Made by a program: the position numbers and the translations under genes. The notes beneath the pieces are model-generated. The model was not told the origin of the DNA, searched no databases, and saw only the letters and a program-made list of their open reading frames with translations. DNA of 64,000 nucleotides from Sporodiniella umbellata (lineage: Eukaryota > Mucoromycota > Mucoromycetes > Mucorales > Rhizopodaceae): contig JAIXMR010000131.1 in assembly GCA_025677835.1 (NCBI GenBank), forward strand, positions 1 to 64,000. Reading direction: 5' to 3'. Shown piece after piece: positions 3,879 to 54,606 of the stretch (the stretch's first letter is position 1; every line of letters starts with the position of its first letter).

Positions 3879-6800
3879 TTATAAAAAGGTTTTGGGTCGT
3901 GTGGGTGGAGGGGATATCGTTTCCTGACCCGCAGGACGTTTGGAGCCCAAGAGGGGAGGCTCTTCTATTTTCACCGGTCCTTTGGGTGGCACCACGGTGG
4001 GTGGAGGCAACATGGTTTCTTGAAGGTAGAGATTGGCAGGTATGTGAGTAGAGAGGGGAGGGAAATAAGGAAATGTACACTAAAAGAGATGGGTGAGTGA
4101 AAGTTTAAGAAGAGGCCTGAATTACCGATCGAATAAGCGCGCGCGCCTGGGCATCCTTGACCAGATCGCCCCAAGCATCACTTTTGGCCAACGATTGCGC
4201 GTGGCCCAAGACAAAGAGGGAACATTTGGCTCGTGTCAGACCTACGTTCATCCGTCTTTGATCGGCTAAAAAACCAATCCCACGCCCTGAACCGGCCCGC
4301 ACACACGAAAAAAGAATAATCTCTTTTTCTTGCCCTTGAAAACCATCCACTGTATTGAAATCAATCACGTCCACAATCCCTGTTCCAAACCGTTTCTGGA
4401 ACCTGGCTTTCAATTGACCCACCTGCTGTTTATACGGGGTAATCACACCAATCTTGGAAGCAAACTAGAGTGGAAAAAAAAAAAAGTAAGTGTCCCTTGG
4501 CTCTTTCTCTTTCTTCTTCTTACTTTGACCGTTGGCAGTTGGGACACCAACGAATCTACCAACGCCACTGCCGCATCCGCTTCGGCCACGTTAAAAACCG
4601 ATTTGCCTCGACCGACCTTTTCCTGCCCGTCTTGAATATCGTAAAAACAATAGGGCGGGAACGAGGGCAAGGCGTGCCAAACGGCTGAGGCATGCGATGC
4701 CATGTTTTCACCATCCTGTAGCCGGGACTGATAGAACAACCGGCTGGGGAAAGCACTGATCTCAGGATGCATACGGTATTGGATACTATCGAAAAAAAAA
4801 AAAAAAACCACACACACACACACACACACACATACATACAGTCATCAACAACTAGCTTTGGCTAACGCCAGTTTACCTTAACAAACTCACTTCTTTCCCC
4901 ATACTTTTCTCTAGTCGCATAAACAAACTCTGAGGATAGCCATACTGACTAGCCACCGTAGACATCACCGTGGGCGGAAGCTGTTCAGGATCCCCCACAA
5001 GAATACAACGTTGGGTATCGAACTTGAGCGGGATCAACGAGCTCAGTTCGATCGATTGAGCCGCTTCATCCACAATGACCGTATCAAACGTAGCGCCCAT
5101 CCCTGTCAACATATCGTGGCCGCTGCCACTGAGGGTGGCACAGACCACGCTGGCTTTCGCAAACACCTTTTGACGTGCCCGGACACGGGAAACCTCCATT
5201 TCCTGCCCATAGTTCTTTTGCTCCTGATAGGCCTCCCGCAGTGCCGATTTGGCCTTCACTAGCTGTTGTCCTAATTCTTTGCGCTTGCTCCGTAACTTGG
5301 ACATCTGTCCCATATCGTTCCCGGCTTGCGTAATCTCGCGATCCACATCGTCCAGGCCGATCTGCAGGTTACGAATCTCGTTATGAAGACTGTCCAGACG
5401 TAACCCAATCTTGCCCAACCGCGTATCGTTCCCCGTTTCCATCTCACTCTCCACCAGTCGATCCAGAATACGATCCTTGACAGAACTATGCACCGCATCA
5501 GCCACGCCGATACGCACCACGTTGGGTTGGCAAAGCCCACCTGAGGTCCGAACCCCTTCTTTCAATCGTTTCGTAATCTCGTCTACCGCCGCATTACTCG
5601 GCGCGCTCACCAACAGCTTGCTCTGTGGCTGTTGTTCCAGTAGAGCAAGGATCAACGCCAGAATCGTCTTGGTCTTGCCTGTGCCCGGTGGCCTTAGATA
5701 TATAAAAAAAAAAAAAAAAAAAAAAAGAGAGAACGTAAGAAAACGAAAGGACCGATCACTATACCCTTGGATCAACGAAAAGCCTTTGCGCTTTTCAAGT
5801 GCAGAGGCAATGGCTTCCGCCTGGGGCGTGTTCACATGATACGTCTGTTGGTACTGTTGTACGACCGAGGCCGGCGGGCGGCGAACGCCTGATGGTTTCG
5901 GTGATAACAAGCAGGCCCCTAGTTCATAATGTTCGAGCGCCTCTAACGCGGCGTATTCTCGCAAGAGAGTGGTCAGACTGACCAGGATGAGTGCATGGCT
6001 AGCCTATGTTATAAGGAAACTTACCTCATCACCTTCAACACGCTCCATAACGTCTTGGGTGAAATCGCATTCAAGACCGTGATACGCTCATGGGTAAAAT
6101 AGGAACGTATACAGACTTCGCCCATACTCTTGCTCTGGTGAATGGACATCACTTTGCCCAGAAAGGCACGGCGTCGCCAAGGTTTCTGTGTCGCGTCGCC
6201 TTCCGTCAGCTGATCCGGTTGCTCGAAAAAGGCGGACCCGAAATGGTTCGCCACACAGACAAGGTCGTCGGTGGAAAGGTGACTGCTGATCTGGTGCATG
6301 GGCAGCATAAAGGAGATATCGACAAAATCGTTGGTATGGCAACGACCCGAGACCATACACCGTTCGAGCACATCGCTTGCACTCAGACCCTCGCGCGCGC
6401 GTTGCATCTGACTCCAGCTTTCTGCCATCAGCAAAGGCTCGAACGTTTGCTTGTAAGCCTGGAAAGAGGCAAACGTCGACGGCACCCGCATAGACACCGC
6501 TTGCCCCGGTGGGCTCTCCCCCGTCACCGTCAGATCCCAGCCAAACACGGTCTTGTAAAGCGCATCCATCTTGGGCGCCAGTTTCTGTCGTCGCACTTGC
6601 GCACGCTGCCGTTGTTCTTTTTGCTGCATGTACTGATGCGTCGGATTATCGATCATCTGCACCTTGCGTTTCGGCTGGGTGTCAAAGAGCGCTTTCAGAC
6701 TCGCACTTTCCGCTCGTACGTTGGCCGCGCGGTCGTTCAAACTCACCAGACCTTCCAGTCCGCCTTCTTCATCTTCAGATGAATCCGAAGAAGACTGTTC

Positions 6801-9800
6801 GGTCGCGTACCGTCGATGAAGCGCGCTCGAGGGTGATTTTGCTGTGGCCATCATCCGTTGCTCCGCTCGAAGTTCCTCGCGCAAACTCTTGATCTTGGAA
6901 AACCCCATCGGTGGTGGCTTCAGCCTTCGACCCGTGCTCGTCACCGAATACGTCGGTTGGTTGGTTGGCACATACACGCGTTCTGCATGCCCTTTTCGTC
7001 CCTCTTTTGGCTTTGCCATCGGCTGTGTCGAATAGACCGGATTCACCCTCGCCCGTGATGGCCCACCCGGTACGGCAATCGGCGTCGCCGCCGCCGCCGC
7101 CCTAGCTGTCGTTTTCGTCACTGCTTTCGTCACCGCTTTCGTCGGCTGGATCTTGGGCGGGTCGATCGCCATCGGCTCTGGCTTAACTTCGTCCAAGAGC
7201 CCTTCTTGCATCATGTGCGCAATATCCAATGCGCCATATTCCTCTGCAAACTCGTCATCATCCGAAATCTCGTAGGGCGCTTCTTGGCTCGTCTCAAAGA
7301 AACGCGTTATTTTGGCCTGTCGTGGTGGGGTGCGCAAGCCAACCTGCGCAAAACTTTGATCCAGCGTCATCTGCTTTGGAGCGCTCTTCTTGACGTGGCT
7401 TTCCACAGGTGTATGTACAGTCTGCCATGCCACCTCTTCATCATCACTGTCGTTCAAAAAAATAAAGTGGCTCGGTTCGTGTGCACTCAGACTCATGAAC
7501 AGTCTTTCCTTTTCGTTGGCGCTCAACTTGCTAGAATTCACGCCGGTGGCAGCCGCCATCAATCGGTCGTACGCTTCCACTGATACCTTGCTCTCCTTCT
7601 TGGTCAAGAGGCTCAACAGATCGATCAAGAGCGGCATCAGACGACGGATCACGTCCTGACGCGTCACATAAATCCAGTGCGAAAGCGCGTCGGTCGAGCT
7701 CTGCACATGGTTGTAGGCCAGCTCGTATGTCTCCAACTTGCTACGGGACTGCATCAGCCCTTGCGCACTTTCAAGCACCGGAATCAACGCGTCTACCACG
7801 TCGCGGGGGCGGTAGCGTTCGGCCCAGCTGAGACCGCTCTCAAACACAAACGCAATCGTCTGCCAGCTATGATCCCAAAAGATTCTTATCTGGTGGGCAT
7901 CGTCCGGCATCATCCCAATAAAGGTCGCCAGGAGGTGGATGAGATGGGGAATGGAGTGAAAGACGTCCAGGCCGGTCTCAAAGAACGCCAGATGTTCCTG
8001 GAGTATCGCGTTCACTGCCTCAAACGCACGTGGGGAACGCAGCAGTTGGACTAGAGCGACGCTTTCGCTAGCCCAGGTACGGAGTTCGGCGTACTGAGAG
8101 CTCCAGAAGTGCAACAGTGGCTTGGTCAATTCATCCTCTGTGTTGTGTTCTAGCTTGATCAGGGGCAAGATACGTAACGTCAGGTCGTGGATCGAGCGTA
8201 CTTGTTCAGCTACCTGAGGGACTTTTAAAAGCGCTTTCTGTTCACCCAAGTTGGGTACGTCGATGGTAGCCACCGCAGCATAGGATTTTAAAAGCATGGG
8301 CGCAAACTGATTGGAAGGGTGCTGGCCGAGTTGCTGCATCAAGACATGCCAGATGGCTTGATAGGATGAACCGACCTCCACCGGCTCTTCAAGAGAGGCA
8401 GCTTGATAGCAAAGCAAAACAGACGATGTATGTTTGTCCATCAGATCACCCAACATCCCCAGGGCCGCTTGAGGTATATGCTGAACAATCGTCGGTAGAC
8501 TGGCCGCTTTCCACTGCGTAAATGACAAGATACGAGGCACATACTCTTCGATTTTCACCCGAGGCACACTATCGTCCGAAAGACACTGCTCGATTATCTG
8601 TAGACCCAACTCGGCACAATACGCACGACTCATCACGCCCCAACTGTCCATCTGAAAATAACCAAAGGTGGTATCAAGCATTCTGTTGGTGATTTGCTCC
8701 TCTACAGGCGACTGCCGTAACGAAGACCAGTACGGATACATCCATTCCAACATGCTCTTGATCCTCGCCATCAACTTATCTTCTGGGTATCGCGTTCCGT
8801 CTTTCTGTAGAATCTTGCCTACGTTGCCTTCACGGGCAATCTTCATCACGGACTGAAAGACATGATGTTCGCAAATCTGTTGAATAATAGATTGGTACAC
8901 TTCAGAACTTGACTCGATCTCACCCCAGAATTGGCCTTGTAGTTTGATGAGCATGATAGTCATCGTCTTTAATATTTCGCTTAACCATTCACTCGGCGTT
9001 GCCAGCTGCCTACAGATCAGGTCGGGCATCGACACGTTGCTTGTCTTCATACTGCTCTCAAGCACCTCAGAAGAAACCGTGGTCGCTAACAGCCGTAGCG
9101 CTTTCCAATACTCACCCATGTTCTCTGTCAGCCGAAAAGGCAAGGCGAGGTCTTTACCCGAGAGCAAGCAAAAAATAGCGACACAGGTACTATCCAACTG
9201 GCTCGCTCTATCTTCTGTCGCTGCAAATTTCTCTAATAGCTTTCTGCACCAAAATCGAACGATCCGATGATGGTGTAGACTGAGCTGGAATAGGTAGGGT
9301 GCTGTGTCGGTAGCGAGCGTGGGGAACATCCCAGTCTTTTGAATCTGATCAAACATGTTGCAAAAGTAACGATCGCAATCGGCTGAGCTTAGCAACTCAA
9401 AAGAAAAAATAACTTCAACCAAGGCGCTCATGACTTGATCTGTCAAGGTAAACTTGGCTACGCAGGTCTGAAACGTGGACTGAACTCTCTTTAAATCAAA
9501 CGTCTTTAGGATCTCAAAAAATTGTTCTACCGTTTGCTTTGGGAATAGCTCTTCATATCTATACCCGTGTCAGTTTTATCGTGGTTTCTGTTTCCTAGTT
9601 ACCTATTTTGGACAACAGCTTTGGATAGTTGATACTGCTTTGCGCAGTGGCTACAACTCTTGAGCTGTTGATTCATTTGATCTTTGTACTGAACAATCGG
9701 TTCATGATCAGGTAAAGAGAACAGCCAGAGAGATTCTCGAGCAATCGGTAGGATCTCTAAAGTGCACCACCAGTGTGGCACAGACAACAAAAACTCGAGT

Positions 9801-40070: not shown

Positions 40071-42886
40071 CTATTTTGAATAAAAGCTATTATAATCCAG
40101 TCTAGTAGATAATGATCTCAAGTCTTCATCATGATAGGATCTTAAGGCTTCCAAGAACTGCAATGTTTGTGTTGTAAATGTATCTTCTATTTCCCGACGA
40201 TGACGACGAATATTTTCAAGCTTTTCCTCTTCTCTAAGACCAAAACGAGTATATACACTAGCGGTTTGTTGGTCTGCATAAAGACAAAGGTGCTCCAGGA
40301 TGGCTTTATATTTTAGGATGCAATCAAACAGTTGGTTGAGTCGAGGAGCCAGAGCAGTTTTTTTTCGTCCATGAAGGAAGCCTTTTTCAATAATTTCTTT
40401 TAGGTAATGGGTATGTGACTGAATGATGGAATCCAGATCCACGCTGTTGTTTTCGATCTCGTTTTCTAACTTTTCCCATGAACACTCGAGCACTTCAAAC
40501 AACACATAGTGCTGAAGTTGGTATATAAAATGAATCATCTTCTGGATCGTCATTTGGATCTCCCTGAGGTCTTTTAGTAACTCAGGTAAATGTGAGAACT
40601 GACGGCCCGATTTCCCGCACTGTTTCCAAGAGGTAGAAAGCGTATACTGAATGCGTTTCAGACGCCAAAGAAAGTTAAAGATTTGAAGATACTGTGTCAT
40701 GGCGCCGGAGTGAATCACAGTATCCAGGGGTGTATCGACACGGTAGTCCAGCGAAAAGACATCCCAGCCTAGGTCATCTCTCTGAGCTTCGAGCAATCGA
40801 ACGTCGAGTTTCTGAAGTATCTCTGGATCATCGTACTGTGCATTGGATGACCGAACGGCTGTTTCCAAAACACTTGTTAAATGGTGTCGAAATAGCTGAC
40901 TCGCAGGTTGATCCAACTGTGGCCTAAAAGGTGATCAGTAATCAGATAAATTTTTCTCTCTCTCTCTCTTTCTCTCTCTCCCTCTCAATTATGTTGCCTT
41001 TACCCTAATATATCCATCAAATACTCGATACAATCCCCTTGGCCTAAAAAAAGATATCTTTTCAGAGCGCGCAAATGGTCCATGAGGCGGTACTTTGTTT
41101 TCAGCAAGTCCAACAAAAACTGACTGGTTTCTTTATAGATGACCAGGATGGACCTTTCCAAGGTTTGTACTTGATCGTATTTGAACAAGGTATTGTTTTG
41201 TGAGACATCGATACGATGATGACAGCTGTAGCGAATGAAATTTAGGGACTTGCCAATAGAGAATATTTTGAGTGCCAGCTCTTTAGAAATAAACGAAGGT
41301 AGCATATCTTCCCGTATCGAATATTTGTTTTTCCACATCTCTTGTTGAGGCGCATCTACGTTACATGCCACAAAAAACTCTTCAAATGGATCGTCTAGTT
41401 CCCCCTCATAGACCCAGCTCTGTATCATAGCGTAGAAAGGCTGAGAGATAGTGTCCAGAATTTGAGTGATAAATTCCTTAATGAACGGATCTCCATGTTT
41501 TGTATGATTATGTAATATGTTGACTAACGCACCTCCCTTATAGCCTATGATTAACTGAGTGATATTTCTTTATATATATATATATATCTTTGCTTACCAT
41601 GAGAAGCATCGGCCAAAAGAGTCAACAGTCGTAGTTTTTCATTGGTTTCATCTATCCAGACCAACAGGCCTTTCAAGGTCAGATCTTGATCCCAGCGGTC
41701 ATGGTCTATTTGAGCCTCGACTTGTGCCTCGATTGCAGCAATTGATTGATAATAACTTTTTAATTCGTTCCGAATGGCAGCACATAAGGACTGACCTACT
41801 AGCCCTTTGGGTCCTCGTTCGATAAATCTTCGAATGAGCGTATATAACCAACCGGTTTCTGTAAGTCGATAGACCAATTGTTGTGTCGATAGACTGATCG
41901 ACAGTCGTTTATCCACTAGGTATTCATCTGTAGTTGAATCAAATCGTATGTACTGTCCATCGATTCCTTGAAAGACATAGACCAGATCTCTTAGAATCTC
42001 TAGAATCCAAAATCAATAAAAGCGAGCTTACAAAAAAGTATATGCGATGCCTTACGGTGGGTTTGTTGTGCTTTAATCTTTTCTTGTTCGGATAGTGCCG
42101 GTTTTTCATACCGTCTTTTCTGAGTAGGCGGTGATTTTGACAAATTGTCGAAAGAGCGTGGCCTGGATGACTCTATATTAGGCAAGCCTAAGGAACTAGT
42201 AGACATTGGACTAGCCGAACGTACAGACTACCGAATTGGGTTATTTTTCTGTTTTTTTTTTTTTTTTGGCTTTTACATTGTGTGTCGATCTTGGCTGATC
42301 TAAAGGTAGTTTGCTTAAAAGCGACAATAAATAAAGTACCGACCCTTTTTTCTGAAGCTTTTGCTATTATTCCTCAAAAGAATGAGCTTTTTCCAGGTGT
42401 GATTATGTCATTATATACATGCTTGTGTATATGTATTTTCTTACTGTAGAAGATAATCTGCTAAACAACTGAATGAATCTGATCTCTTTCTCTGGATCAT
42501 GAGCGGACTGCTTTACTATAAAAAAATAGTTAATTTCTTTGTAACGAAAAGAAAAGCAAAAGACAAAAAGCATTTACATCGGTCGTGAACATTATTTACA
42601 ATACTATTTTCGTCCGGTACAATTGTCATTTCTTTTTGACTACTGGCCCAAAAAAAAAAAAGATCAGCGTGTCGTATAGAGTGTGTATATATTCGAACCT
42701 TATTAAGAGGTGATTGTATTTTTCTAAAAGACTGTTTTGAACAAAAGATTCCTCAAGATCTTGAACGTCAAAATCATAAAGATCGTGACGATTCATTAGT
42801 TTTGAGAGTGTCTTTATCCATTGTGTTGATTCATGTGTTGTATTTATGGGCGGTTTGTTTATACGAGACTGAGGCGATATATTCAT
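40071..42886 (-). CDS. SPC98: Gamma-tubulin complex protein 3 (GCP3/Spc98)
   Basis: Eight exons (42886-42699, 42639-42578, 42515-42445, 42351-42277, 42227-42056, 41999-41598, 41544-41004, 40923-40071) give 787 residues. The GCP3 N-terminus shows EIRFIQLFSRLSS and SVLYLLSLLSKL. After a basic linker the GRIP1 domain starts at ILRDLVYVFQGIDGQYIRF. KGLVGQSLCAAIRNEL, GGALVNILHNHTKHGD, and the C-terminal GRIP2 (PLDTVIHSGAMTQYLQIFNF; LRREEE-type helices) follow. GCP3 with GCP2 and gamma-tubulin forms the small complex that nucleates microtubules at the spindle pole. Exon 1 ends at a weaker donor (GTTCGA), needed for phase. The small exons 2-4 are predictions from frame and homology. Confidence 0.88.
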
Positions 42887-43018: not shown

Positions 43019-44671
43019 TTAGTAGGCTTCTTTGATTTGTTCATCTACAGGTTCTCTAGGAGGAAGTTCACCGGACAATTCTTCAAGCGATTTTCCTTTA
43101 GTTTCGGGGATCAAAAGGGAAGAGAAGATACCAGTAAGCATAAAGAAGGCAAAGATTTGAAGCAAGTGATTGATCCATTTGTTGGGACCGCCAATATCTT
43201 TCAAGAGGCCAAAACCAACCTGGGCGATAATGGAGCCGACCTTACCAGAAGCAGCAGAGATACCGTGAGCGGTGGATCTATAACGGGTAGGGAAACATTC
43301 ACCAGGTACGATGAATGTGGTGGTATTGGGGCCAAAGTTGAAGAAGAGCTGGGTGATGGTATAGAGAACGATGAAGAGGACATTAGAGGTAGCCAAGATC
43401 TTGTCGTAAGCGAAGCCAAGAATGATAAACATGATGGTCAAGACAATGAAACCCATGATTTGGATAGGCTTACGACCGAGCTTGTCGATGGTAAAGACAG
43501 AGACCCAGTAACCAGGCACGGAACCCAACAAGTTGATGATTACGTTACCGACACAGACACGGAAGACAGCAGTATAGGGATCTTTGTCACCACCGAAACC
43601 GATGTTTGACAGAATAATAGAGTTGTTCAGACCGAGACCGTACCAGGCTACATCTAAGGCAAACCAAGAATAGGCAGCACCAAAGAGAACCTTACCGTTC
43701 TTCCATTGACCAAAGTGACGACAGAAATCACCCCAAGAAGCCTTAGGTGCAGTGGCAGTACGAGCAACAGCAATGTTGTCCGTGTAGTCACCTGAAGAAG
43801 CACCGTTTTGAATAAAGGCCTTGGCATCCTGAATACCCTTTTCCATCTTTTGCTCGACATCGATAGTAAAGCGAGGGGTTTCGGGAATCGTAAGACGATA
43901 GTAAAGAGCACAGAGACCAGGTACAGCACCCAAACCGATAACGATACGCCAGACAAAGTCCAATTTGGTTTGGTCAGCTTGGATAGCACTCTTGAAAGCA
44001 GCGGTGGCGCATAGGCCGACGAGACCGGCAGTGACCTGACCAATACCTTGCATAGCAAAGACTGCAGCCATCATGGCACCACGGCGTTTGGTAGTAGCAA
44101 ATTCAGAAGTAATGACAGAAGAGAGAGGGTAATCACCACCGATTCCGATACCCACCAAAATACGCCAGAAAGTAATCACACCCCAGAAAGAGGCAGCAGG
44201 GCTATTACCGACCAAAGTTTGACCCACAGTTCCGACAATGATAATCATAAGCTCAACACCATACATACGCTTACGACCTACACGATCAGCCAGATAACCA
44301 AACAAGAGCTGACCAATCACTGTACCCACGGAACAAGAGACTTTGATAGCGGTATCTACATTATGAGGTGTTTTGTTGCCGTTTTCTTGAAAGTAGACGA
44401 AACCGATCATGGTGGACACCAGATTGATAGCAAAGATATCATAAGCATCTGTAAAGAAACCGATGCCAGAGACAATACAAGCACGGATATGGAACCAGCC
44501 AAATTCAGCATTGTCAATCTAAAGATGTTTTGGTAAGCGATCGTTCTTGTCTGGCAGTATATAGCTTACCTCTTCTAAAGCAAGACGTCTTTTTTCAATT
44601 GCATCTAAAGCAAGTTGATCGTGTGTTCTTTCTTGATCTGTTTCTAGTGCTCTACTCGATTTGAGAGACAT
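43019..44671 (-). CDS. PHO84: PHO84-type inorganic phosphate:H+ symporter (MFS)
   Basis: Two exons (44671-44570, 44518-43019) give 533 residues and 12 TM helices with a long central loop. Family motifs are FGWFHIRACIVSGIGFFTDAYD, the MFS signature ADRVGRKRMYG, GGDYPLSSVITSEFA (the phosphate-binding GGDYPLS), PETPRFT, NFGPNTTTFIVPGE and FPTRYRSTAHG. It imports phosphate at the plasma membrane and is usually induced by starvation. Third-position base use here is noticeably more GC-rich than in neighbouring genes, typical of a highly expressed gene; this also creates long antisense open frames. It starts 132 bp downstream of GCP3 on the same strand. Confidence 0.95.
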
Positions 44672-48284: not shown

Positions 48285-49333
48285 ATGGCTTTACATCTAT
48301 TAGCTTATGAACTACTATTAAATATTGTATCTAATCTTCATTATAAAGATTTACAACCCTTTTTACAATGTAACAAAAACTTGTTTGCTAAATCGAATCA
48401 AAAAGCCTTTTGGAAAGATCTTTGTATGATGAAAGGTATTAGATATCGCTGTCCTGATATATCATGGCGAGAATTGTACAAATCGGAAAGTGTCCATACA
48501 ATGTGTCCTCATATTCATCCAAGAGGGTTTGAGGATAAAAAGAAACAGTTTTGGCCATTATTCAATCAACAAGATACCACCTGTCCCATTATGTATTGTC
48601 TTTATCCTTCCTGTGAATTTCTAGGTACAATTGATTGATCTCCTTCCCTTATTAAAAAACTTTTTAGGCACAGACGAACAATTTGCTAAACATGTGCATC
48701 CTGTTGCATTAACACTATCGCCTTTACACATCTTTGACGTTTGGTGTGACACTTGTTCTAAATTAGTAAGTGCACCCTTTTTTTTTTTTACTGTAAACAC
48801 ATGTTATTAACCTGTATGTATAGATTAGTCTAAACAAAAATGACAATATCTCTTATGGGGTTAGATCCGAGCGTTATGTATTAGAAAAGCTACTAAAAGA
48901 TTTAGGCTCGCTGACTAAAGAGAAGGCTGTTGACCAACAGATCGTTCAAGGACGAAGAGCGATTGAAAGAAGAGTTTATTCTTTACAGACCCGACTTATA
49001 CCAGTGAACATTATCAGAAGAGATTGGTATCTTTCTTGGTTAGATTTTATCACTGGTAGATCATATGATTTACCCGGTTGTCTGGATAACACAGTCCTTT
49101 TAAAAGAAGGTAGACTGGACCCCACGATTGCTCTAGGTCAACACTTTGAAGTTATATCCGATAAGTTGAAGCACTATATCGAAAAGTTTTATTCACCAAA
49201 GGGCTCTTTTGTTTCTCTTGTGAATTTACAAGGGGATCCAACGTATTGCAAACTTGTACATAAAATCAAAATAAGACATCAAATCCAGCGTGTGGCCCTT
49301 ACCCCTTCTGATATTTTACTTGAACAACCCTAA
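48285..49333 (+). CDS. F-box / ZnF-UBP / DUSP protein without a protease domain
   Basis: Exons 48285-48624, 48668-48765 and 48824-49333 give 315 residues. Residues 1-45 are an F-box (LLAYELLLNIVSNLHYKDLQ...FWKDLC). Residues about 70-155 contain a Cys/His pattern like a UBP zinc finger (MCPHIHPRG; CPIMYCLYPSCEF; FAKHVHP; FDVWCDTCSKLI). Residues about 200-275 match a DUSP domain (IRRDWYLSWLDFITG...LPGCLDNTVLL...HFEVISDKL). F-boxes bind Skp1 in SCF ligases. ZnF-UBP and DUSP domains are normally found in deubiquitinases of the USP20/33 type, but no Cys/His-box protease is present. It may therefore be an SCF receptor reading ubiquitin or a USP-type partner. Domain calls are by eye. Confidence 0.72.
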
Positions 49334-51501: not shown

Positions 51502-54500
51502 ATGAGCGATTGTTCACTTCCTTATCAAGTTGCTCATTGTTCTTCTTGGGATGAGGATTATAGTCCTGAGCAGCTGGTCAAAAGCAATTTCGGTAATGAG
51601 TTGTTTTCTGAAAAGTGCAAAGGCTGGCAAACATCAAAGTAAATAATAATTAATAAACAGGACAATAAACTTTTTTGTTCTAGATATCCTGAATACCCTC
51701 AAGATTTAATTTTTCATTTATTATCCGGTCCAGCTCGAATTCAAAAAATTGAAATTCTATCTCATCACTTTAAAATTGCAACTAAAATGGATGTTTATAT
51801 TGGTTCAGTCAAAGAGGACAGTATACCGGATACAGACGAAGAACTCATGATTGAATTCACTCGTTTGGGGTAAAAATATAAGGAGATTTACCAAAAAAAA
51901 AAAAAAAAAAAGAGGGGGAAAAATCCTATTGACAGCTTTACTTATTTCCCCCTTATAGTTTTGTACGCTTTGATAACAATGCTGGTGCTCATTTCAGAGC
52001 CAGAGAATTGAAATCAATCAAGACTAATATGGACGGAGAATATGTTCGTTTGGTGATTAGAAATTGTCATAATAATAACCTTAATGTCTTTAATCAAGTA
52101 ACCAGAAATAGAGTTAATGTCAAAATTAATTTTTTTTTTCCCTCCAAAAAAAAAGGTGGGTATTCATGCTTTAAATATTCATGGTCAGACAATAGAAGAT
52201 AGAATCCCTTATGAATCCGTAAAATATATACATATTTTTCTTTACTATTCCGTTGACCTGACATTTTAAATATGTATAGAAAAGCCCACCCCTTTATCGT
52301 TTGGATCAGGATAGCTCTCGTCCCCCAAGCGTCAACAGTCAGCGTAGTCTTTCGCCCTATTCCCCAAACCCTGTTGAGGTCGAACTTGAACAATGGGCTC
52401 ATCTCCTAAGCATAGCCGAAGAAGATGCTGTACAGAGTATGTGAATACACTCTTTTTTTTTTTTTTTTCACATTAGTAATACTTCGTTTGTTAGGCGAAA
52501 GCTATCAGGCAGCCAAGGTATACAATTACCTCAGTACGAAAATGCTGCGATTCAAAAAAATCGTTGCTGAACTGGAAGGTGGAAAGAGATATGCAATAGA
52601 AACCAAAGATTATGACGAGGCAGAAAAGATAAAGGTAACAGACATCGTGATTTGATTTTTTTTTCTTATATTTTTGTTAGTATGACATAGAAGATATTCG
52701 ACATAACGTAGAACTGTTGCTGAACAAACATGAATTATGTATAACGCCTGAAGGAGAACTAGCCACTTCAAAGCCCAACAAAACTCAAAAACGACTTTCA
52801 GGAGCTCTCGAAATACCCAAAGATGACGAAGATGAATTAGAGATGGGTCCTCGACCTGAAGACTGGGCTGTTCTTGATCAGCCACGAAAACAACCAACGC
52901 CTCCCTTAGAAGAAGAAGAAGAAGAGTTTGTCATGTTGGCAAGAAATGCGGTAGATCCCGAAAGCATTCCAGAACCTATTCTGGATGAAGAACGAGAACC
53001 ATTTCGACTTGCGATCCACGTGTTTGGAGAAGATACCGTGGCCTGTTTGCTGAGCATCAAATCGAAATGCCGAGGTCGAGGGTTAGGTCAGATGGAAACC
53101 AAGATGGATGAAGTTTATCAATTAGCTCGTAACGATGCCCTCGGGGATCTTTGTAATCTGTTTGAACAAGACTCGTTTGAGACCCAACAGGCTGTAGAGG
53201 ATTTCGTAATTGCCTCGCTCATGTTGATTCAGGAGACGGTGATGGATTCACGTGAGGCGATCGTTACCTTGGTGATCAGTATCTGGCATCAGCTCTTGGA
53301 CTTTTGTGAGGAAGTGGTGGTGGACACTGAACTTACCATCGATTGGGTTGAACGTGCCTTTGGCGGTCTTTTGAAACGGACGAGTGATAGTCATCAGAGA
53401 ATTCGACAGGATGCGACTGCTCTCATCTTGGTCTTGGTCCAAGCCTACTCAGAACCCCCCAATACACTTGTGTCTCTCTATGTCGGAAAGCCAGAACGTT
53501 TGATGCATAATCATAAAGAAGCAAAGTTTCGTATACAATTGGTCGAGACAACCGTACGCAAGCTGGGTGTCAAGGGAAACAAAAAGAAGAATGGTTTTGT
53601 TTCTCTGGAAGATACGATGGCATTTGTCGTTGCCTACCTCAAACATAGTCATGAAGACGTACGCGAGGCAGCTGTCAAATTGGTAATTACCATCTCGGAT
53701 CAAGTTGGATTTAGTCGTATTAGCTCTTATATAGATAGCTCACTCAAAGTGTCCTTAGCTGATGTAAGCCTCACAAAAAACAAAGAGACCTGTTTATTGA
53801 TCAACTTACATAGACGGTCAAGAAATTTGCAAGTAATAACAAGACTATCAAAAGTGATACAAAGAAAACGATTTCTGAAATTAATGCCATGGCAGCTCCC
53901 TCACAAAAACTTAAATTAAAAAAAACCGAAGCAAAAAGCACTACCGCAAAGAAAACAACAAATACCCGAACGCCTCGCTCTAAACCTAAAGAAGAACTAG
54001 TTTTAAAAGAGGAAGACAAGTAAGAAAAAGAACGGAAGGGGCTTCTATACATTACTTACAAAATGATTTTAGTCTATGTATCTTTTGTGAACAAGTCAAT
54101 CCAGACTTTAATGAAGAGACATTAATAAAGCATTACTACAACGCCTGCCCAGTATTGACTACTTGTCCTACTTGCAAAGTGGTAAATGTATTCTTGTACA
54201 GTTGCAATCAAACTAACCTTTCTTCTTTTATTAGATAACTGAAATTGCTACCTTAAATGAACACATGTTAAAAGACTGCGAAAAATCTCACCTAATCAAA
54301 GAATGTACTCGATGTCACCAGGCTATTCCTGTAGAACAATGGCTTCAACATTCATTAAAACAAACATGCCCCAGTAAGCCCAAGACTGTGAATGTGTATA
54401 TAACCCAGACTAATCCAGCTTTTTTTTTTCTGGGTATAGATTTAAGCGATAGAAATAGAGTCGTTTGTCCTTTATGTATTACAAATATTGAACCTCCTAA

Positions 54501-54606
54501 TGAATCAGGTTGGAAAAGCCATCTTCAGACAGGCGAAGGTTGTCCTAAATTAAAAAAAAATCGTCTAGCCAGCAAGGCGATCAAAAAACGAACAATAAAG
54601 AAATAA
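51502..54606 (+). CDS. CEP104: CEP104 homologue (ciliary-tip / centriolar microtubule protein)
   Basis: Eleven exons (51502-51638, 51684-51869, 51959-52097, 52156-52218, 52280-52436, 52495-52634, 52681-53763, 53814-54019, 54073-54181, 54235-54373, 54440-54606) give 841 residues. The order matches CEP104. An N-terminal jelly-roll has GWQTSKYPEYPQDLIFHL, GFVRFDNN...RARELKSI and NVFNQVGIHALNI. A coiled coil (KRYAIETKDYDEAEKIK) and a TOG-like helical array (about 330-610) follow. A lysine-rich linker leads to the C-terminal zinc-finger array CIFCEQ, CPTCK, CTRCH and CPLCI...GWKSHL. CEP104/FAP256 caps ciliary plus ends and binds tubulin and EB1. I see no SxIP motif. Phases agree throughout. Confidence 0.9.

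What the first reader, a model, noticed from the sequence alone, without database searches (positions are those of the whole stretch)
51502..54606. Complete CEP104 homologue in an apparently non-flagellated fungus
All CEP104 regions are present in order (jelly-roll, coiled coil, TOG-like array, C-terminal CxxC zinc-finger array) over 11 in-phase exons, so it looks intact and expressed. CEP104/FAP256 is known as a ciliary-tip and centriolar protein and is expected to be lost with the flagellum. If the source is a mucoralean fungus, the protein has been kept for another microtubule plus-end or spindle-pole job. GCP3 is about 9 kb away. If instead the organism swims, the finding is about taxonomy.
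Basis: partly seen in the sequence, partly recalled or inferred. Interest (0 to 1): 0.75.

Follow-up and report, generated by a model that had tools for sequence, protein, structure and literature searches.

The report
CEP104 kept by non-swimming fungi
A mould that has no known swimming stage carries two intact copies of CEP104, a protein best known from the tips of cilia, and relatives in three fungal groups carry it too, so it probably has a second job outside cilia.

Summary
Confirmed. Window 51502-54606 (+) encodes an intact 841-residue CEP104 in 11 GT-AG exons; jelly-roll, TOG and four-finger ZnF score far above Pfam cut-offs and match solved CEP104 folds. It is identical to a GenBank "hypothetical protein" of Sporodiniella umbellata (Mucorales), so the source is a non-flagellated fungus. 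The genome shows one dynein heavy-chain place, only alpha, beta and gamma among 9 tubulin loci, and no IFT57, SAS-6, radial-spoke or PACRG match (four absences without a positive control). A second intact copy shares 9 of 9 introns. The family occurs in Mucorales, Glomeromycotina and Mortierellomycotina, and its tree follows the species tree out of chytrids: vertical retention after flagellum loss. Some relatives already bear CEP104 names in databases; my paper searches found no account of it. New here: among 44 Mucorales rows none keeps the aromatic tubulin-contact residue of the TOG domain (18 of 18 rows outside Mucoromycota do) and none has an SxIP tail, which 3 of 5 mortierellid rows show; jelly-roll and zinc ligands are better kept. 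Best reading: a non-ciliary microtubule-end factor whose tubulin interface was remodelled in Mucorales. Function is untested.

The parts
51502..54606 (+). CEP104 gene copy A, 11 exons (51502-51638, 51684-51869, 51959-52097, 52156-52218, 52280-52436, 52495-52634, 52681-53763, 53814-54019, 54073-54181, 54235-54373, 54440-54606 with stop), 841 residues
   Evidence: exon model, stop codon read; identical to GenBank protein P0001
51502..52218 (+). N-terminal jelly-roll (CEP104_N, residues 41-164 in Pfam), exons 1-4
   Evidence: Pfam 137.2 bits; fold like IFT25 and XRCC1
52280..52730 (+). predicted helical stretch, taken as the coiled coil (model helices at residues 206-290)
   Evidence: residue-to-base conversion by hand from the exon table
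52981..53763 (+). single CEP104-like TOG domain (about residues 375-635)
   Evidence: Pfam 135.2 bits; 5lph and 5jo8 top Foldseek matches
53062..53064 (+). Ser402 codon, at the place of the TOG T1-loop aromatic (human W448)
   Evidence: phmmer alignment; MAFFT alignment A2
54018..54546 (+). four-finger C2HC zinc array (CEP104_ZnF), 16 of 16 ligands present
40074..42012 (-). gamma-tubulin complex component 3 (GCP3) ORFs; neighbour, not part of the system

Best explanation
This is a true, vertically inherited CEP104 orthologue that outlived the flagellum in Mucoromycota because it also had a job outside cilia. Most likely it holds and stabilises microtubule ends in the cytoplasm or spindle (hyphal plus ends or the spindle-pole body), docked by its jelly-roll and zinc array to partner proteins, with the TOG domain near the tubulin end. 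Shown here: identity, intactness, two copies, vertical descent, constraint, no sign of flagellar genes as far as searched, and the lack in Mucorales of the TOG aromatic and of a C-terminal SxIP motif. Inferred: that it sits on microtubule ends, that recruitment in Mucorales goes through jelly-roll/ZnF partners rather than EB1, and that the remodelled TOG loop changes tubulin affinity.
For: CEP104 domains in order. Homologues with these domains in Mucorales, Glomeromycotina and Mortierellomycotina. Careful tree of 30 rows: algae, animals, aphelid-like row, chytrids, Mortierellomycotina, Glomeromycotina plus Mucorales; 100/98 for Mucoromycota. Two copies, 9 of 9 of B's introns at the same column and phase as in A; dN 0.35 with dS saturated. 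Jelly-roll and ZnF are the best-kept domains among 14 chosen Mucorales rows, mean identity 0.74 and 0.66 against 0.51 for TOG. Two EB1 loci and an XMAP215/Stu2-like ORF show ordinary plus-end machinery. Three of five mortierellid rows have SRIPK after the ZnF, like the SKIP/SRIP of vertebrates. Human CEP104 blocks plus-end growth and slows disassembly in vitro, and some ciliary-tip proteins also act on cytoplasmic microtubules and in cell division (PMC12170345, passages).
Against: No localisation, expression or binding data. In Mucorales the tubulin-contact aromatic is gone (0 of 44), the V493 place is Arg (as in chytrids) and no SxIP follows the ZnF (0 of 44; some tails are cut), so the known ways onto microtubules look weakened. 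SxIP-type strings elsewhere in the protein occur in 25 of 44 Mucorales rows, copy B included, so EB binding by another site is not excluded. The join of Mucorales with Glomeromycotina is weak, 83/39. CP110 domain not found (no control rang). Of positions conserved outside Mucoromycota, most Mucorales keep 9 of 17 in TOG, 30 of 40 in the jelly-roll, 26 of 32 in ZnF.
Confidence: 0.55

Rival explanations
1. CEP104 was repurposed in Mucorales into a scaffold that no longer binds tubulin: the TOG fold stays as a platform, while jelly-roll and ZnF bind partners such as a NIMA/NEK kinase.
For: T1 aromatic missing in 44 of 44 Mucorales rows and replaced by a kept alternative, Cys-Arg at the loop end in 41 of 44; no SxIP after the ZnF in 44 of 44; ZnF and jelly-roll better kept than TOG.
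Against: R626 place still Arg in 77% of Mucorales rows; W448A only mildly weakened tubulin binding of the human TOG (PMC5222566, passages); the TOG fold is intact in the model. NEK kinases were not examined.
Confidence: 0.25
2. Evolutionary relic: the gene is decaying and does nothing.
For: Long stems for Mucorales and mortierellids (1.11 and 1.07 changes per column, against 0.16-0.46 for the glomeromycotinan and chytrid stems); no partner known.
Against: Intact in two copies with kept introns, dN 0.35 with dS saturated; 16 zinc ligands in 36 of 44 Mucorales rows; found in three subphyla.
Confidence: 0.05
3. A hidden flagellated stage or contamination: the gene comes from, or serves, a swimmer.
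For: In the species of the papers seen, CEP104 is mainly described as a ciliary-tip and centriole protein (passages).
Against: One dynein heavy-chain place; no delta or epsilon among 9 tubulin loci; no IFT57, SAS-6, radial spoke or PACRG match. The contig is 66 kb and the nearest relative is from Rhizopus stolonifer (77% over the full length, 79%). The four zero results lacked a positive control.
Confidence: 0.02
4. Horizontal transfer into Mucorales.
For: None found.
Against: The tree repeats the order chytrid, Mortierellomycotina, Glomeromycotina with Mucorales.
Confidence: 0.01

Closest known systems
CEP104 / FAP256 (human, Chlamydomonas, Tetrahymena)
   Same: Domain order, four C2HC fingers, TOG and jelly-roll folds; mean 37% identity in jelly-roll and in ZnF between 14 Mucorales rows and 8 rows of the animal set
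   Different: Present without a flagellum; T1 aromatic of TOG and SxIP tail not found in Mucorales; two copies in this genome
CEP104 of chytrids and an aphelid-like row (P0061, P0074, P0128)
   Same: Same domains; Arg at the V493 place in 3 of 3
   Different: They have Phe at the T1 place; chytrids swim
Mortierellomycotina CEP104 (Entomortierella, Mortierella, Podila)
   Same: Non-flagellated; three CEP104 domains (one protein; labels)
   Different: SRIPK motif near the C-terminus in 3 of 5 rows; T1 residue is Leu in 5 of 5
XMAP215/Stu2 and CLASP TOG proteins
   Same: TOG fold; CLASP1 TOG1 and the 4ffb TOG are lower Foldseek matches
   Different: A separate gene of this kind exists in this genome (L022); jelly-roll and zinc array are not known from that family (recalled)

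Membership tests
CEP104 | CEP104_N jelly-roll domain | tested here: met
   137.2 bits against cut-off 27.5; fold
CEP104 | CEP104-type single TOG domain | tested here: met
   135.2 bits; 5lph and 5jo8 best folds
CEP104 | C-terminal four-finger C2HC array with 16 ligands | tested here: met
   113.5 bits; 16 of 16 ligands; 5lpi fold, 38% identity
CEP104 | Orthology (groups with chytrid and animal CEP104 in species order) | tested here: met
CEP104 | Tubulin-contact residues of TOG (human W448, V493, R626) | tested here: not met
   Ser, Arg, Arg: one of three kept. A feature of function rather than of descent; the V493 place is already Arg in chytrids
CEP104 | SxIP EB-binding motif after the ZnF | tested here: not met
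   none in the tails of copy A or B; also absent in flies (PMC5222566, passages) and in 2 of 2 green algal rows, so not required for membership
CEP104 | Localisation to centriole distal end or ciliary tip | not testable with these tools
   needs microscopy; the genome shows no flagellar genes as far as searched

The most novel reading that the evidence does not exclude
In Mucorales, CEP104 was released from tubulin after flagellum loss and rebuilt into a new scaffold: the T1 tubulin contact was exchanged for another kept sequence, EB recruitment by the tail was dropped and the gene was duplicated, while mortierellid fungi kept EB recruitment. The phylum would be a natural series of steps by which a ciliary-tip protein finds a new role.
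Probability: 0.25. Interest if true: 0.75.

Novelty: new variant of a known kind. Interest (0 to 1): 0.55.

Why it matters
CEP104 is counted among ciliary genes in phylogenetic profiling (PMC10425847, passages) and is mutated in Joubert syndrome (PMC6900356, listing). Its retention in three subphyla without cilia points to a role outside cilia, and gives a setting in which that role can be studied with no cilium in the way. The stepwise differences (SxIP tail in 3 of 5 mortierellid rows, T1 aromatic in 6 of 11 glomeromycotinan-type rows, neither in 44 Mucorales rows) make predictions that can be tested one domain at a time.

Tried and rejected
Tektin as a flagellum test: 0 matches, but tektin is among the orthogroups without fungal homologues in PMC13358043 (passages), so it says nothing. 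CP110 domain search: 0, no control rang. Absence in Dikarya or Zoopagomycota: no such name appears among the listed proteins, but the lists are capped by word sharing, many rows have no name, and the mortierellid proteins are also missing from the 120 listed (of 128), so absence is not shown; Umbelopsis and Endogonales were not seen either. dN/dS could not be given as a number: dS was saturated and the second method failed. LxxPTP EB motif: 2 of 72 rows scanned (P0066, P0075). GCP3 neighbourhood: real, no sign of a functional link. The list of 132 flagellar orthogroups shared with non-flagellated fungi (PMC13358043) may contain CEP104; its main text holds neither CEP104 nor FAP256 and supplements could not be read.

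Full report
What is there. The window gene at 51502-54606 (+) has 11 exons joined by 10 GT-AG introns and encodes 841 residues without a break (the stop codon, 54604-54606, read). It is identical to a Sporodiniella umbellata protein in GenBank named only "hypothetical protein" (P0001); contig length 66490 equals that of G000:C37. Taxonomy places the species in Mucorales, Rhizopodaceae. Three CEP104 Pfam domains score 137.2, 135.2 and 113.5 bits. The 3 PDB sequences matched at E 0.01 are all CEP104 domains. The predicted structure has mean pLDDT 83.8, and Foldseek returns CEP104 TOG, CEP104 ZnF and, for the jelly-roll, IFT25 and XRCC1 first, APC10 lower.

Second copy. In the genome (25.9 Mb, 198 contigs) the CEP104_N, strong CEP104-TOG and ZnF matches all fall in two genes (two further weak TOG places are L021 and L022). 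Copy B on C149 is P0004 (899 residues). Its 10 exons were recovered from the DNA; 9 of 9 introns fall at the same alignment column and phase as in A, and A has one more. A and B have the same residue at 466 of 805 aligned codons; dN 0.35, dS saturated. In the tree A pairs with Rhizopus stolonifer P0002 and B with R. stolonifer P0021, so the duplication appears to lie within the Rhizopus/Sporodiniella group; an older duplication within Mucorales gives a clade of six of the rows used (P0043, P0044, P0046, P0050, P0051, P0054).

No flagellum as far as searched. Dynein D6 domain 1 place, IFT57 0, SAS-6 0, PACRG 0, radial spoke 0. Tubulin: 13 matches in nine loci, 5 beta, 3 alpha, 1 gamma (the class names are mine, from sequence and mutual identity). 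The method does find cytoskeletal genes here: tubulins, dynein, two EB1 loci, an XMAP215/Stu2-like ORF (L022). For SAS-6, PACRG, radial spoke and CP110 nothing rang in the 14 control genomes, so those zeros are weak; for IFT57 three archaeal controls rang, none over the cut-off.

Spread of the family. One search lists 65 proteins; those with an organism name are Mucorales (Rhizopus, Mucor, Lichtheimia, Absidia, Cunninghamella, Pilobolus and others) except the chytrid Blyttiomyces. One search lists 32, among them Glomeromycotina (Rhizophagus, Ambispora, Geosiphon, Glomus, Funneliformis), Mortierellomycotina (Mortierella, Podila, Entomortierella, Dissophora), a chytrid and two animals. One search (jelly-roll of Rhizophagus) found 128 among 499 candidates, 120 listed: glomeromycotinan fungi, some Mucorales, green algae, animals and unnamed rows. 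Some carry database names such as "centrosomal protein of 104 kDa-like" or "flagellar associated protein". Pfam finds the three domains in 6 of 6 relatives scanned, with a partial ZnF in the two chytrids. The careful tree of 30 chosen rows (of 201 proteins) gives algae, animals, aphelid-like P0128 (the name Paraphelidium is my reading of its label; its branch is long), chytrids, Mortierellomycotina, then Glomeromycotina with Mucorales; Mucoromycota 100/98, the last join only 83/39. This is vertical descent. Flagellum loss at the base of Zoopagomycota, Mucoromycota and Dikarya is the published view (PMC8371127, passages).

What changed. Alignment A2 holds 78 of the 201 proteins. Human TOG residues W448, V493 and R626 matter for tubulin binding; V493D and R626A are severe, W448A mild (PMC5222566, passages). 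I placed them through the phmmer alignment (numbering inferred from the construct limits) and A2. At the W448 column: W 14 and F 4 in 18 rows outside Mucoromycota (5 of them without an organism name); Mucorales 0 of 44 aromatic (V 16, A 13, S 11, I 3, G 1); Mortierellomycotina 0 of 5 (Leu); glomeromycotinan-type rows 6 of 11 (Phe), two of the eleven being unnamed metagenome rows. A looser check over the whole loop gives 18 of 18, 3 of 44, 0 of 5 and 7 of 11 rows with any aromatic. In Mucorales the loop reads SxKxKCR in 35 of 44 rows and ends in Cys-Arg in 41 of 44, so it is exchanged rather than random. The V493 column is Arg in 56 of 78 rows including the two chytrids. R626 is Arg in 77% of Mucorales rows. 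SxIP was scanned in 72 of the 78 rows; after the ZnF it is found in 5 of 8 rows of the animal set (one of the eight unnamed), 3 of 5 Mortierellomycotina (SRIPK), 0 of 44 Mucorales, 0 of 10 Glomeromycotina, 0 of 3 chytrid/aphelid, 0 of 2 algae. Some tails are cut: 3 Mucorales rows have none. SxIP-type strings elsewhere in the protein occur in 25 of 44 Mucorales rows, copy B among them and copy A not. Rows with 16 of 16 zinc ligands: Mucorales 36 of 44, Glomeromycotina 8 of 10, Mortierellomycotina 4 of 5, chytrid/aphelid 1 of 3, animal set 6 of 8; the shortfalls were not inspected one by one. Positions conserved in at least 80% of rows outside Mucoromycota and kept by most Mucorales: jelly-roll 30 of 40, TOG 9 of 17, ZnF 26 of 32; at the 70% threshold 38 of 57, 15 of 37, 34 of 45. 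Rows are related, so these are counts, not tests.

How it may work. In vitro, human CEP104 blocks plus-end growth and slows disassembly; its jelly-roll binds CSPP1 and CCDC66, its ZnF TOGARAM1, its SxIP EB proteins (PMC12170345, passages); the ZnF also binds CP110 and NEK1 (PMC5222566, passages). The kept jelly-roll and ZnF suggest that partner binding is what selection holds in Mucorales. I therefore favour a non-ciliary microtubule-end factor recruited by partners (0.55), with a tubulin-free scaffold as the main rival (0.25). No partner was identified here.

Novelty. The protein is a CEP104; the family in these fungi is visible in databases. Searches of the held library for CEP104 with Mucor (0 papers), with Rhizophagus, with fungi (10 papers, none on this going by title and start of abstract; two of them read in passages) and FAP256 with fungi (likewise), and broader searches (listings) showed no account of it. 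PMC13358043 counts 132 flagellar orthogroups shared with non-flagellated fungi (passages) and PMC10406608 describes gradual loss of ancestral families (passages); CEP104 may be in their supplements, which I could not read. Hence: a new variant of a known kind, moderately interesting.

Noticed in passing
G000:C149:88574-91851 (+), locus L004 3575-6852: Second intact CEP104 copy (GenBank BY458DRAFT_515368), 10 exons, its 9 introns at the positions of the window copy.
   Followed up: yes
window 40074-42012 (-): GCP3 ORFs, by Pfam and PDB matches; a DUSP-domain ORF (48824-49330) and a sugar transporter (43022-44518) lie between it and CEP104.
   Followed up: partly
P0012 (labelled Rhizopus stolonifer CU098): Groups with Choanephora and Blakeslea in the tree, not with Rhizopus; the record may be misnamed or mixed.
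   Followed up: no
P0050 (Mucor velutinosus): A CEP104-domain protein named Oxysterol-binding protein 4; possibly a naming error.
   Followed up: no
Mortierellomycotina rows P0075, P0077, P0079: SRIPK motif near the C-terminus after the zinc array, like the vertebrate SKIP/SRIP, in fungi without flagella.
   Followed up: partly
G000 loci L006-L014, L021-L024: Five beta- and three alpha-tubulin loci, two EB1 loci, and two TOG ORFs of which L022 matches Stu2/XMAP215 and L021 looks alike by eye.
   Followed up: partly
window 4001-8000: G+C 52.5% against 32-43% in the other 4 kb steps of the window, over a SEN1-like helicase (4876-9569, -).
   Followed up: no
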